A stretch of DNA of 64,000 bases from positions 310,001 through 374,000 of the forward strand of contig JAIXMQ010000012.1 in the NCBI GenBank assembly GCA_025716855.1. Direction: 5' to 3'. Source of the stretch: Pilaira anomala (taxonomy: Eukaryota; Mucoromycota; Mucoromycetes; Mucorales; Mucoraceae). Shown here piece by piece: positions 3,001 to 37,102 of this stretch. A program made the translations under genes and the position numbers. The stretch's first letter is position 1. Each line of letters begins with the position of its first letter. Under the pieces are notes generated by a model. It was given only the letters and a program-made list of their open reading frames with translations. It was not told where the DNA came from and searched no databases.

Positions 3001-3664
3001 GTTTGCTTTCTTTTAATTTATCGTTACATGCTAGTAATCGATCTCTGATTTGATTTATCTGCTCTTTCAAGTTTTTAATGTCTTGTGTTTTCTTGGCCAA
3101 CTCTTGACGTTGCTTTGTTGTACTACTTTCTGCTTGAGTTTGTCTTAATGCTTCACATTCAGTTACTAATTGATCGATATACATCTATTTGAGGGAAAAA
3201 AAAAAAAAAAGGAAAAGAAATTAATACATTGAATTAACGTACATACAATTATTTCAGAAACTTACTTTATTACTTGTAAGTGTTGTTGTGGTTGTTTCTT
3301 TCTCTGATTTTAATGCGTTTAATTCGTTGCGCAGCTGTGTTATATTTTCGGTTGCCATACGATTTTTAAGATCGTCTCGTTCTTGTGTAATAATGCGAAT
3401 AGTTTCATTGCTCTTGAGTAGATCAGTCTCTAATTGATTTAATTTAGCATCAAGATCTGATCTGTGTTTCTTTAAAGTCTCTGTCGCTTTAAAAAAAAAA
3501 AAATAAAAAAAAATAAAGTTAGTTTCTCAGTCAAAAAAATAATAAAAAAAATTACCTTCTTTTTGACGGGACAAGACATTCATTAATTGACCTGTTTTTA
3601 TGATTCTTTCCTTTACTTGTGGAACAGAATCCGCGATATTATTTAACTTGGCTTGATCGGACAT
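1..3664 (-). CDS. Coiled-coil protein with 58-aa tandem repeats (3' end outside window)
   Basis: Exons on the minus strand are 3556..3664, 3266..3486 and <1..3184; phases agree and the frame stays open to the left edge, giving at least 1,170 residues. The start is the ATG at 3664-3662. Residues ~30-330 are heptad-rich, charged and free of proline, typical of a long coiled coil. An acidic, Ser-rich segment follows (Ser runs then SSSEE repeats, ~2270-2370). Next come eight units of 58 residues with the core RRPVEEISPISNESYDRQ, then a basic linker and a Thr/Pro-rich tail of 12-residue units (ATPATTVKPTNI) at ~110-545. No enzymatic domain, signal peptide or membrane segment is seen. I do not recognise the family; a scaffold or cytoskeletal/chromosome-associated role would fit the architecture but is a guess. 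Confidence 0.8.
105..545 (-). repeat. 36-bp (12-codon) Thr/Pro repeat in the same gene
   Basis: A 36-bp unit encoding ATPATTVKPTNI on the minus strand is repeated about ten times with some degenerate or inserted units (near 190-215 and 360-390). It is embedded in the open frame of the coiled-coil gene and forms a Thr/Ala/Pro-rich, probably disordered, tail. Confidence 0.85.
760..2160 (-). repeat. 174-bp coding minisatellite (58 codons), about eight units
   Basis: The anchor ctcctctac (or caac) recurs at 1028, 1202, 1376, 1550, 1724, 1898 and 2072, exactly 174 bp apart. A diverged unit is anchored near 854 and a further degenerate one lies near 2170. The spacing keeps the reading frame. Neighbouring units share private variants, for example aattcttgaagg in two adjacent copies and gatgtgctactc in three, which points to recent unequal exchange or conversion. 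Confidence 0.95.
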
Positions 3665-29600: not shown

Positions 29601-32174
<2,574 letters not shown>

Positions 32175-32267
32175 ACTCGTCTATGAACAAGGAAGAACAA
32201 AAAGATAAACAATTGAAAAACTTTTTTTTTTTTTTAAAGCAAAAAAAAAAAAAAATATATATATATA

Positions 32268-32303
32268 TACTGTATTTTCACGGGTTATTGGGAAAAAGTG
32301 ATT
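32268..32303 (+). repeat. Left TIR and TA target duplication of the Fanzor element
   Basis: TA at 32268-32269, then the terminal repeat from 32270. It matches the reverse complement of 35292-35324 with one mismatch (G versus A at the second base of the GGG/GAG triplet after GGGTTATT). Directly left is a (TA)n microsatellite. Confidence 0.9.
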
Positions 32304-32950
32304 GGATTTTTGGGGAAATTAAACGCAGTTATTGAGAAAAAATGACTGGTATTTTTTGGGAAAGTTTATATTTTATTAATTAAATTGAGAAAATTTGATT
32401 ATCAAAGTTTTCCTTCCGTAGCTAAACAGCGTTCAAAAAATGAAACAGAATGTCTAATCCAACCTTGGCATGCCCTTAAAATTCTAGGAGTTAATTTGTC
32501 CCCGCTGTCAAAGGCTTCTCTCTTCACGCCAATAACTGGTGTAAGTACTGAAATGTTGTGATTACTTGCCACTGAGAAATCACCAAGATTTAAACTTAAA
32601 CTAGATGTATTTTTTTATAAATATGGTCCAACTAGAATTGAGTCAGCTTAAAAGATACATAGAAAAATAGATAATAAATTTACCACTAAAGGTTGGGCAC
32701 CAATACGTAAAATAATAATAAAATAAAAATAAAAATAGAAAAGCCTACAGATGAGAAAGATAGTAAAAGGATACTTCCTCTTAATATCTTAAAGGGAAAA
32801 GTGTATCAAGAGTAACGAAAACAGGTAGTCACGCATCAGTACTAGACAACAATCCGCAGTAGCTGATTTATTTATATTGATTCAAAAAAACAAAACTCTT
32901 TTCTTTCTTTTCTTTATAAGTAGCCAAAGAATTTTTCGATATAAATTAAA

Positions 32951-35135
32951 ATGTTATCTCCTTGTAAGGGAGAAAGTCATAAAGAAGAAGCTCAGAATGT
33001 AAATGTTATACAAACGCGGTTTTATTTTTGTATTTAACGCTTTTTTTAGCATAAAGAACTTCAAATTATCACTGTAAAATCTTCTGTCAAAGGAATAGGA
33101 TGGAAAGACGAGTATGTTGATACGCTCAAGAAGTTAGTATACGATGTAAATATCATTGTTACACATACCTTTTCTTTGATAAAGTATATCTTTATTCATG
33201 AATTGAACACGAATGAAAACTTTGAACTTGAAGAATTTGCTACGCGGGGCTTCTATAGAGAAGTTTTTCTATCGCTTCTAGATTACAAACGTCGAGATGG
33301 TAGTACAGGTGGTAAATCAAAATTGTCTGAAACAGTTAACAAGTTCAGAAGGATTATCGAAAAGCATTTCGAATCTTATAAAGAATGCTCATCATATGTA
33401 CCCATCAAGCTTTCTAATGCTCAACAAATTGCTACTTACGAATCTATAAAAATTGAAACTGCCTTTGACAACAATCTTATACTGCAATTTGGTAATCAGT
33501 TAAGAAGATTTATTAATACCGTACTTCAAAAAAAAGAGCGTATATCTCAGCTGAAAACTGATTTAACGAATAAACACTGTTCCGATGCTGAGATCAAAGC
33601 CTCAATCAAAACTAACGTAATAGAGCCAATTACGCAAGTCAAACTCGCTATATCGACTAAAGATATTAACAAAATGCCCAAAGGTTTTATTGGTGATAAA
33701 AAAGTTCTTGGTTATATAAACGATCTGTTCTCATCCTATGATAGTTCTTATAAATTCAAGAAAGGCTCTATATACTATGACGTCAAAGCAAGTCCCAGAA
33801 AGCATCTACTTGCATATTTCAAGCTTGCTAATTTATGTGAATCTTGTAAGATTAAATCTTTTCAATGCTTTCCGACAAGAAAAAAGTTTATACCCTGCCA
33901 CATAACAATTGATACGAAAATTTTAAATAATCATATATTAAAAAATACCAATCAAGGCAAATTAGACAAGCAGAGATTATGGGACCAAGTTATAAATATG
34001 TCTACTAAAGCCGTCAAACCACAGGGCAAAGCTAAATCTATACAATTTAGAGGTACTATTATGACGGATGGTATCGCTGTTTCTGTAATAAAACAGAATG
34101 AAGATACTAGCAAAGGTAACTGTAGTAAAAGCACTTTGTCTAAAACTGTTGATGAAAATATCGATTATTTGGAGAAGCTATCTTTACAAGAACATGTATC
34201 AACTGTAGGAAAATGCGTTATGATAGATCCTGGTCGGAGAGACTTATTGTATTGTATGAGTGAAAATAGCGAAAAAGACAAAAAATTGGTATATCGCTAC
34301 ACTAGAAACCAGAAAGCAGTCGAAACAAAATCTACCAAGTTTAGGAAGCTTCGTCAAAAGTATAAACCCGAGCATGTTAAAGAAGCCGAAGAAAAGTTAA
34401 GTCTGCATGCTGCTTCCACTGTTGATATAAATAAGTACAAAAATTATATCAGAGCTAGAGCCGGAGTTAGTCAGGATTTATATCAATATTATTCAAGCGA
34501 AGATAAGAAGAAAGAAGAACGTCCTGAAAATACACTTCCTTTTCGAAAGCTTAAATTATCTTCATATATAAACCAAGTACAGGCAGACAAAAGACTAGCA
34601 AGTAATTTAAGAAGAAAATTCGGAAAAGATAGCGTACTAGTTTTCGGAGACTGGTCTGGTGCTCATACTAAATTTCATGAACCAATTCGAGGTAAAGGAA
34701 CTAGAAGAATGTTGAAAAAAGAGGGGTTTCAGGTGTACCTCCTTAACGAATACAAGACTTCTAGTGTCTGCCCCACTTGTACTAGCTCATCGTTAGAGAC
34801 TTTTAAAAAATGCAAGAACCCCAGACCGTACCAACGGAGCAAAAACCCTATAGTTAACTGCCACGGACTCTTAAGGTAGGTCTTTTTTTAAACATCATAT
34901 AGACTTTTTATACAAGCTCTAAACTTTTATTTTCAGATGCACAAATCAACAATGTTTAGAGTCAGTGAGCAATAATAATGGTAATAACTTCCGTGTCTGG
35001 AACAGGGATTTGGCTGCGGTTTTAAACTTTGCGACAATTGTAAAGCAGTTAAGAAAAACTATGACCCGTCCCGATGTCTTTAAGAGAAAAAACTTTGAAG
35101 ACAGTTCTGCCAAAAAAAAGACTCGTTTACAGTAA
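32951..35135 (+). CDS. Fanzor RNA-guided endonuclease (eukaryotic TnpB homologue)
   Basis: Exons 32951..32998, 33050..34875 and 34937..35135 encode 690 residues, in the size range of the longer Fanzor class. The C-terminal half carries the split RuvC nuclease: D409 in MIDPGRRDLL (RuvC-I), a GDWSGAHTKF block and E583 in LLNEYKTSS (the rearranged catalytic Glu position described for Fanzors), and D649 in WNRDLAAVLNF (RuvC-III). Between the last two lies a zinc ribbon C590-x2-C593 ... C626-x4-C631; its second half is made only after splicing of the last intron. The N-terminal ~380 residues are Lys-rich and would bind guide RNA and target DNA. The frame has no internal stop and all catalytic residues are present, so it may be active. 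Family biochemistry is known from other Fanzors; activity here is inference. Confidence 0.92.
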
Positions 35136-35324
35136 TTTTCCTTCCGAGTTAACGCTCAGGATACACAAGATACTGTCTAACAGGTATTAAATATATATTT
35201 TTTTTTTTCATACCAAAAATAATAGCTAATATTTTCCAAAAAATTCACTCAATTCATTCCAAAAACTCACTTAATTCATCCTAAAAATTCGCTCACTTTT
35301 TCTCAATAACCCGTGAAAATACAG
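35136..35324 (+). ncRNA. Candidate guide (omega/f) RNA region of the Fanzor element
   Basis: In TnpB and Fanzor elements the guide RNA typically spans the 3' end of the nuclease ORF to the right element end, and the spacer is the flanking host DNA. Here 189 bp separate the stop codon and the right end, made up of three ~25-bp direct repeats plus the right TIR. No fold was computed; the call rests on position alone. Confidence 0.35.
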
Positions 35325-35326
35325 TA
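35292..35326 (-). repeat. Right TIR and TA target duplication of the Fanzor element
   Basis: Ends CCCGTGAAAATACAG followed by TA (35325-35326). It is the reverse complement of the left end. Confidence 0.9.
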
Positions 35327-35713
35327 TGTCGTATTCAGTGACCGCTTATAAAGAGAGAAAGAAAAGGTTGAAAGAGTATACAACTTCCTCTCCATATCAT
35401 ATTATCAAACCGCTCGCGTGTTTTACTTGTAAAATATATTTGTTTATTGGGAAGCTTGTAATAGAACAATTGCTTTTTAAACGAGCTCTTTTTTTTTTTA
35501 CGTCTACTATGTTTGAATAAAAGGCTCTAGGTTTTTCATACAAAAACTTTAGTTTATAAAAATCAATCTTAGAAGTCTATATCTCCCTGTAGTAGCTGAA
35601 GCAATTATGTACGCTATGCAACTGAATTGCAAGTGTAGCCGTTAAACCATACACTATATTAGCCAAGGCCCTTTTTTTTTTATATACAGCGGGGTAAAAA
35701 AAAAAAATGTTCA
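35327..35713. other. Spacer between two mobile/repeat elements, no gene seen
   Basis: About 390 bp of AT-rich DNA; the 64-codon frame at 35326-35520 shows no motif. Confidence 0.5.
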
Positions 35714-37102
35714 AGCCAATCAAATCATCTAAAAAAGCAAAAAAAAAACTACAGTGATTTCTAGCCCTGGAAATCTCTTTTGTCAAAGTAAAGTCCTTCA
35801 ATATTAACTATTTTATTATACAATACTATATCCAAAAAATGCCAAATTTAGATGGGCAGATGATTGTATATAAAGATATATATTTTTATATGTGAAAAAT
35901 ATACTTTCTCTAACAAAAACTGTTTTCCTTACATGCACTACAAATGGAGAGTGCATGTAGTACGGTCTACATACACCTCGTTTTTCGGTCCCAGAAATCA
36001 AAATTTTGACAAAAAATACCTTCTTGTCAAAGTAAGGTCCCTCTAAATCAGCTATTTTATTAAACAATATGATATACAGAAAGTGCAGAATTTGGAGGCA
36101 CATCTTTCTATATGATTTGATTTATATTATTGGAAGCAGAAAATATACTTGCCCTAACAAAAACTGTAAACCGTTTTATCACAATAACCATTAATATTTG
36201 TAATTATATTATTTTGATTTTTACATCATTCGAAAGAGTACAAAATTCTGTATTTACTGTTAAAAGACCAAGCGTCAAAATCTTTTTTATGTAAAAATAT
36301 ATCTACCTTTCTGATTTTTGAAAAAATTCATAGGGGGGGACTAGCAAATTTTTCTAAAAAATGGAATTTTTTTCACAGCTTAAAAAAAATTAAAAATTAG
36401 AAATGCAGATATATCTTTGTATTTAAATGGTTTTAAAGTTAGATTTTTATTGATGTCTAAGGTAGAATTTGACGCTCTTTCGAATGATGTAAAAATCAAA
36501 GTAACATAATTATAAAGTTTAATAGTCATTGCGAGAAAGCACATCTTCTATTAGAGCATGTATATTTTTTATATATAAGATCATAAATCTAAATGCATAG
36601 AAATCTTAGTTTTTAAATTCTACATCTTTGGAATATAACATTGTCTAACAAAATATGTCTGTATCCTGATTTGGTTTTTTTCCTGTTTTTGGACCTAAAA
36701 ATTGAGATTTGGGTTCAAAATTCTTTCTTTTCAAATTAAAGTCTTTTATTTCACGTATTCTATTATACAATATAATATACAGTCGATGCAGAATTTGAAG
36801 GCGCATATTTATATTGATTTAGAATTATTATTTTTTATGTAGAAAATATACTTGCCCTAACAAAAACTGTATACCGTTTTCTCATAATATTTATAAATAT
36901 TTATTACTATTTTACTTTGATTTTTACATCATCGAAAAGAGCGTAAAATTCTACATATGTCGTAAAAAAACCAAACTTGAAAACCTTTTCAATTTTAAGA
37001 TGTATACATATTTCTAATTTTCAAAAAAAATCAAAGGGGGGGACCTGCTGATTTTTACCTAAAAATTCACTTTTTCCCCTTTTTCCGATGATTTGATTGG
37101 CT
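35714..37102 (+). repeat. Dispersed non-coding repeat, copy B, with terminal inverted repeats
   Basis: Starts AGCCAATCAAATCATC and ends with the exact reverse complement GATGATTTGATTGGCT. From about 35779 the interior matches 4596-5921 throughout. No ORF of note is shared, so conservation is not from a protein. Multiple internal inverted arms (for example around 36224-36239 versus 36475-36490) could fold into long hairpins. It could be a non-autonomous DNA element (MITE-like, unusually large); no target duplication was evident. Confidence 0.8.

What the first reader, a model, noticed from the sequence alone, without database searches (positions are those of the whole stretch)
32270..35324. 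Complete, possibly active Fanzor element in a fungal genome
The spliced 690-residue frame keeps all three RuvC acids (D409, E583, D649) and a full zinc ribbon (C590, C593, C626, C631), and has no stop or shift. It lies alone between near-perfect terminal inverted repeats flanked by TA. Old copies normally accumulate lesions, so this copy looks recent or selected. RNA-guided cleavage is established for other Fanzors; for this one it is inference. The last intron separates the two halves of the zinc ribbon, so unspliced message would encode an inactive nuclease.
Basis: partly seen in the sequence, partly recalled or inferred. Interest (0 to 1): 0.85.

Follow-up and report, generated by a model that had tools for sequence, protein, structure and literature searches.

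The report
Recently mobile Fanzor transposon in Pilaira
This is an intact, recently copied fungal jumping gene that carries an RNA-guided DNA cutter (Fanzor), and the DNA around it and its sister copies suggests where its guide RNA lies and which short DNA motif the cutter needs.

Summary
Window 32270-35324 is a 3,055-bp element with TA outside both ends and inverted repeats matching at 31 of the outer 33 positions. It carries a three-exon, 690-aa Fanzor1 with no stop; the closest solved protein is Parasitella PpFz1. The genome is Pilaira anomala (Mucorales).

Added here. (1) Four 690-aa copies at four loci are 99.2-99.8% identical, so it moved recently. (2) Its left arm keeps a transposase C-terminus, and Tc1/mariner (DDE_3) elements share its ends, so it is a non-autonomous mariner. 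(3) A hairpin after the stop, and a possible stem between TACTGT and the element end plus TA, recur in three Fanzor families: the probable guide-RNA scaffold, with the guide from 35327. (4) The left flank reads TATATA in 6 of 7 copies, the right in 0 of 6. A second family reads CATA on 11 of 21 left and 2 of 27 right ends. CATA is SpuFz1's published motif, so TATA is the predicted motif here. (5) The closest database protein stops at the unspliced last intron and lacks D649.

Cleavage, guide RNA and splicing are untested. New member of a known kind.

The parts
32264..32269 (+). Left flank TATATA, ending in the target-site TA; the TATA at 32266-32269 is the predicted target-adjacent motif
   Evidence: TATATA at 6 of 7 family 1 left ends, 0 of 6 right ends; the window's own left flank is part of a longer TA run
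32270..32302 (+). Left terminal inverted repeat, outer part
   Evidence: 31 of 33 positions match the right end; 74% over 90 nt
32405..32533 (-). Remnant of a mariner transposase C-terminus
   Evidence: tblastn with the L053 transposase, E = 1e-20
32951..32998 (+). Fanzor exon 1
   Evidence: Open frame with GT..AG intron 32999-33049
33050..34875 (+). Fanzor exon 2: REC, WED, RuvC-I (D409), RuvC-II (E583), C590, C593
34876..34936 (+). Intron 2, between the two halves of the zinc ribbon; if kept, a stop follows at once
   Evidence: same place in L015, L016, L018; database protein P0001 ends there
34937..35135 (+). Fanzor exon 3: C626, C631, RuvC-III (D649), stop
35142..35161 (+). Candidate omega-RNA stem-loop 1 (seven stem positions, one mismatch)
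   Evidence: Recurs in three Fanzor families
35171..35176 (+). TACTGT, candidate 5' strand of omega-RNA stem-loop 2
   Evidence: 6 of 6 pairs with 35321-35326
35292..35324 (+). Right terminal inverted repeat, outer part; its last four bases with the following TA form the candidate 3' strand of stem-loop 2
35325..35326 (+). Right TA of the target-site duplication
35327..35341 (+). Predicted guide (host sequence, 15 nt, by analogy with published Fanzor1 RNAs)
   Evidence: The 19-mer 35325-35343 has no second exact match in the genome; length from PMC10711439 section 27

Best explanation
A recently mobile, non-autonomous Tc1/mariner transposon whose cargo is an intact Fanzor1 nuclease. SHOWN: intact ends with TA, four near-identical copies, an intact frame with the Fanzor1 catalytic set, a transposase remnant, and transposase elements with the same ends elsewhere in the genome. 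INFERRED: such a transposase moves it in trans. The transcript running past the stop through the right end becomes the omega-RNA: stem-loop 1, a nine-nucleotide linker, stem-loop 2 closed by the element end plus TA, then a guide of about 15 nt from the host flank. Fanzor with this RNA recognises TATA followed by the flank, that is the unoccupied form of its own site, and cuts it; repair from the occupied copy then keeps or spreads the insertion. Once the element sits between TATA and the flank, the site is no longer a target.
For: Protein. Copies. Shared ends and DDE_3 transposases; remnant. Stem-loop 1. Stem-loop 2: 16 of 17 copies tried could be scored, 12 with 6 of 6 and 4 with 5 of 6 pairs. 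Flank motif: family 1 TATATA 6 of 7 left, 0 of 6 right (Fisher p = 0.0047); family 2 CATA 11 of 21 left, 2 of 27 right (p = 0.0008). Element by element, 16 left only and 2 right only (p = 0.0013). Precedent: SpuFz1 has CA before the left end and CATA as its TAM (PMC10432273).
Against: No expression, RNA or cleavage data. The flank motifs were chosen after seeing the flanks, and related transposase-only ends also favour TATA (4 of 13; left ends against these p = 0.057). One family 1 copy (C72) and 10 of 21 family 2 left ends lack the motif. Single-sequence folds of the 3' end are not exceptional (nine stretches, z from -1.2 to +0.05). In the stem-loop 1 test the number of double-changed pairs is reached by 374 of 500 shuffles. 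Copy C181 lacks the hairpin pattern. The window copy has three private replacement changes.
Confidence: 0.7

Rival explanations
1. A mariner deletion derivative that carries Fanzor only as a passenger. The nuclease is intact merely because the copies are young, and the flank motif reflects transposase target preference.
For: Transposase-only ends also show TATA at 4 of 13. The window copy has only replacement changes of its own. Dozens of broken Fanzor stretches are in the genome.
Against: The flank bias is one-sided in the Fanzor elements. In family 2 the two ends are inverted copies about 92% alike over 316 nt, so a transposase that reads the ends should not tell left from right. TATATA occurs at only 1 of 13 transposase-only ends.
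Confidence: 0.22
2. As the best explanation, but the omega-RNA is matured by splicing: an intron is removed between the scaffold (ending 35183) and the element end, so the guide is joined to a scaffold of about 50 nt.
For: Family 1 has CAG|GTATTA and the only later AG in its last 95 nt at the element's terminal CAG; family 2 has CAG|GTAAAG, TACTAAC and ATAG|TGGG. The joined forms fold into the same two-stem shape with a nine-nt linker. With a guide their length would be near the 75 nt given for the PpFz1 RNA (PMC11423790).
Against: AG depletion is no more than base composition predicts: family 1 right ends 0-1 against 1.2-2.2 expected, family 2 right ends 0-1 against 0-1.0. Two family 2 copies and the family 3 copy C162 lack TACTAAC. 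Stem-loop 2 can form without splicing. I found no paper on it.
Confidence: 0.12
3. A domesticated Fanzor gene kept for a host function.
For: Intact frame in a genome with many broken copies.
Against: Four near-identical copies at different loci, each with intact ends and TA.
Confidence: 0.03

Closest known systems
PpFz1, Parasitella parasitica Fanzor1 (PDB 9cf0-9cf3; PMC11423790)
   Same: Best match by sequence (E = 1e-177) and by fold (9cf1 and 9cf0); same RuvC and zinc-ribbon residues
   Different: Lacks the FRI insertion that binds cyclophilin in PpFz1 (gap at query 511-515 against chain 1001-1093). The TAM of PpFz1 is ATN; the one predicted here is TATA
SpuFz1, Spizellomyces punctatus Fanzor1 in SPu-1 (PMC10432273, PMC3627910)
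   Same: Fanzor-only element with TIRs and TA duplications; catalytic residues align; published left-flank motif plus TA equals the TAM
   Different: Distant protein (E = 4.1e-60); single-frame gene and an element of about 2.1 kb; TAM CATA, as found here beside family 2 but not beside the window family
Fanzor1 in Tc/mariner elements (Bao and Jurka 2013, PMC3627910; passages seen)
   Same: Fanzor-only elements with TIRs identical to mariner elements and TA duplications are described there
   Different: The Mucorales examples in the passages I saw are MuDr-like with 9-bp duplications or unclassified; no flank-motif test appears in those passages

Membership tests
Fanzor1 | Sequence and fold similarity to proven Fanzor1 nucleases | tested here: met
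   PpFz1 1e-177 and SpuFz1 4.1e-60; 7 of 7 fold matches at E <= 0.001 are Fanzor1 chains
Fanzor1 | DPG motif in RuvC-I and a glutamate six residues before the zinc ribbon | tested here: met
   D409-P-G; E583 and C590 with six residues between; both columns invariant in 18 relatives; criteria from PMC10711439
Fanzor1 | Complete RuvC triad and four zinc-ribbon cysteines | tested here: met
Fanzor1 | Omega-RNA from the right end with a guide from the flank | tested here: inconclusive
   Conserved hairpin and matching stem in sequence only; no RNA data
Fanzor1 | RNA-guided DNA cleavage beside a TAM | not testable with these tools
   TATA predicted from flanks
Tc1/mariner transposon | TA target-site duplication | tested here: met
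   TA outside both ends of the four near-identical copies, C72 and C181
Tc1/mariner transposon | Ends shared with elements that encode a DDE transposase | tested here: met
   Five two-ended elements of about 1.7 kb differ at 2 of 21 end positions and hold open frames of 388-475 aa; the two scanned, L050 and L053, are DDE_3
Tc1/mariner transposon | Own complete transposase (autonomous element) | tested here: not met
   Only a C-terminal remnant: a non-autonomous member
PpFz1-type Fanzor with FRI domain | Insertion of about 100 residues in RuvC | tested here: not met

The most novel reading that the evidence does not exclude
The Fanzor's own RNA-guided cutting decides which mariner copies persist. 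A symmetric transposase inserts at many TA sites, but copies are kept mainly where the two bases left of that TA complete the nuclease's target motif. The genome thus records the motif (TATA for this family, CATA for another) on the left side only. That would be evidence from a natural genome that a Fanzor works as a homing or retention device for its transposon.
Probability: 0.45. Interest if true: 0.75.

Novelty: new member of a known kind. Interest (0 to 1): 0.5.

Why it matters
What Fanzors do for the transposons that carry them is open; [quoted passage not shown] A fungus with two Fanzor families that each have recent intact copies and their own left-flank motif, with transposase-only relatives as a built-in control, makes the retention idea testable by sequencing more strains. 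The predicted motifs, TATA and CATA, also give a protein pair (about 56% identical) for learning how the motif is read. The closest database protein ends at the retained last intron and would lack D649 if expressed as it stands.

Tried and rejected
Pfam found nothing above its cut-offs in the spliced protein (only a chance coronavirus model at E = 0.034) or in two relatives (weak Cas12f1-like TNB hits, best E = 0.0024). The protein database lists PF26935 for the relatives, but the library here does not hold it. Rfam gave no hit at its curated thresholds over 31500-36300. Single-sequence folding of 3' ends was not exceptional. AG depletion as a sign of splicing was rejected as evidence. My first hairpin alignment used wrong coordinates for two sequences and was redone. 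The first exon join was off by one base; one search is the right one. Reading the window copy as under selection was dropped. A domesticated gene was rejected because of the near-identical copies. For stem-loop 2, C180 could not be scored because its element end is altered. In the flank counts, C113 and C224 carry fragments in both orientations; without them family 2 reads 10 of 19 against 2 of 25 (p = 0.0017). Those counts use ends listed, whose list was cut, next to Fanzor matches; they include three ends of the related CTGGATT type (one left, two right), and one right end (C180) lacks TA.

Residues that may read the motif: SpuFz1 uses R291 opposite the C of CATA (PMC10432273). By eye, family 2 has an arginine next to that place and the window family has none. 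Not tested further.

Full report
Observation. The element spans 32270-35324. Its ends match at 31 of the outer 33 positions and at 74% over 90 nt, and TA lies outside each end.

Host. The window lies at G000:C24:310001-374000 of a 34.25-Mb assembly in 225 contigs. The three closest database proteins are named Pilaira anomala, and the contig lengths given for P0001, P0002, P0003 and P0010 (376588, 1307520, 356238, 759234) equal those of C146, C1, C151 and C204 here. Pilaira is in Mucorales.

Protein. Two distinct PDB sequences matched at E up to 1, both Fanzor1: PpFz1 at 1e-177 and SpuFz1 at 4.1e-60. A model of exon 2 (mean pLDDT 80.0) matched only Fanzor1 chains at E <= 0.001, 7 of 7. The DPG and alternative-glutamate fingerprint of Fanzors (PMC10711439, passage of section 23) is present. 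PpFz1's FRI insertion is absent. The closest database protein, P0001 (625 aa), ends at HGLLR, where intron 2 begins, and so lacks D649 and two zinc cysteines. Intron 2 lies at the same place in the three family 2 copies that the script could read of five tried (L015, L016, L018), and P0003 and P0011 show the spliced form.

Copies. The protein search listed 87 matching stretches, a lower bound since 72 of 140 candidates were scored. Seven cover residues 1-609 or 5-609 without a stop: four of the window's family and three of a second family, about 56% identical. The four window-family copies each encode 690 residues and differ pairwise by 6 to 23 substitutions in 3,021-3,055 positions. Two of the three intact family 2 copies, on C143, share the same flanks and count as one insertion.

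Transposon. A genome search for the outer 21 nt gave 35 places with up to 3 mismatches and none for the reversed control. Five two-ended elements of about 1.7 kb with this kind of end hold open frames of 388-475 aa; the two that I scanned, L050 and L053, are DDE_3 transposases. The window element keeps the C-terminus of such a transposase on the minus strand of its left arm. It is therefore a non-autonomous member of that mariner group. That these transposases move it is inference.

Guide RNA, stem-loop 1. Just after the stop a hairpin recurs in three Fanzor families. On 13 distinct rows 93.6% of cells pair, and one position is A-U, U-A or G-C. Sliding the partner lowers pairing to 29.5-74.4%. 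Against shuffles, the covariation score and the number of double-changed cells are each reached by 6 of 500, the percentage paired by 44, but the number of double-changed pairs by 374 and the number of pair types by 332: a mixed control on few families. Its core pattern occurs 50 times in the genome against 0 for the reversed control; by their places nearly all lie in elements that one search lists, while one on C170 has no Fanzor match there. It is in none of 13 transposase-element loci scanned and in four of five other window-family copies, C181 being the one without. The published first stem of three Fanzor1 RNAs has seven pairs (PMC11423790, section 5); this one has seven positions with one mismatch.

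Guide RNA, stem-loop 2. Nine nucleotides on, TACTGT can pair with ACAGTA, the element end plus TA. In family 2 the strands are TACAGG and CCTGTA, in family 3 TACTG and CAGTA or TAGTA. Of 17 copies tried, 12 give 6 of 6 pairs, 4 give 5 of 6 and one could not be scored; representative strands give 5-6 pairs within a family and 4-5 across families. A caution: the internal strand resembles the start of the element's own end, so complementarity to the other end follows from that. That the TIR and TSD form part of the scaffold, with a guide of about 15 nt beyond the TSD, is reported for insect-virus Fanzor1 RNAs (PMC10711439, section 27). The guide here would start at 35327. The 19-mer 35325-35343 has no second exact match in the genome; five places differ at 2 or 3 positions.

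Target motif. Left flanks read TATATA in 6 of 7 window-family copies and right flanks in 0 of 6; transposase-only ends with this kind of TIR in 1 of 13 (TATA in 4 of 13). Family 2 left flanks read CATA in 11 of 21, right in 2 of 27; transposase-only ends of a related mariner group in 1 of 20 (1 of 15 distinct). In the window's own sequence CATA and TATA make up 5% and 12% of four-base stretches ending in TA, and TATATA 3.4% of six-base ones. Element by element, 16 have the motif on the left only and 2 on the right only (p = 0.0013; family 2 alone 11 against 2, p = 0.022; family 1 alone 5 against 0, p = 0.06). The motifs were picked after seeing the flanks, which these p values do not allow for. 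In SpuFz1 the bases CA precede the left end (PMC10432273, section 7) and the TAM is CATA (passage). I therefore predict TATA for the window protein.

Mechanism. Shown: intact gene, intact ends, recent copies, one-sided flank motif. Inferred: mobilisation in trans, an RNA-guided cut at unoccupied sites, repair from the occupied copy. In bacteria TnpB acts as such a gene drive in plasmids (PMC11870625, abstract). From recall, a mariner that leaves keeps a few of its end bases behind; such a site would no longer read TATA before the guide match, so the cut would fall mainly on never-occupied sites.

Literature. PMC10432273: passages and section 7. PMC11423790: passages and sections 4 and 5. PMC10711439: passages and section 27. 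PMC3627910: passages. PMC11870625: abstract and outline. Searches for Fanzor with TAM and transposon, Mucor, Pilaira, donor site/homing, both ends, introns and spliced showed me no title or abstract start on Pilaira Fanzors, on a one-sided flank test or on a spliced omega-RNA; the library holds open-licence papers only. Bao and Jurka 2013 already describe Fanzor-only mariner elements, so the kind is known.

Noticed in passing
L012-L016, L018 (family 2 Fanzor elements): The left end is an inverted copy of the right end (316 nt, about 92% alike in L012), so the candidate omega-RNA hairpin occurs at both ends, pointing outwards, in several copies. The flank motif is enriched on the left side only.
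   Followed up: partly
L056:2072-3211 (C72): A different DDE_3 transposase (380 aa) sits inside a broken window-family Fanzor copy, at element position 349-350: a nested insertion or a composite.
   Followed up: partly
C113, C159, C160, C171, C184 (L114, L116, L120, L121, L128, L132): Mariner elements whose one flank is nearly the same 26 nt at six ends, several of them in facing pairs some 6-13 kb apart: mariners inside a longer repeated element, or composite transposons.
   Followed up: no
32172-32269: The element starts 95 bp from a probable start codon (ATG at 32174, minus strand, by eye) of a host gene; DEAD and Helicase_C domains lie further on at 29881-30938, minus strand. Whether they are one gene was not checked.
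   Followed up: no
35780-35923 and 36024-36167: A 144-nt direct repeat, 73% alike, just right of the element.
   Followed up: no
L013 and L014 (C143): Two family 2 copies on one contig, in opposite orientation, share the same flanks: a duplicated block rather than two insertions, or an assembly effect.
   Followed up: no
34876-35135: Database protein P0001 of this family ends where intron 2 begins, so its model lacks exon 3 with D649 and two zinc cysteines.
   Followed up: yes
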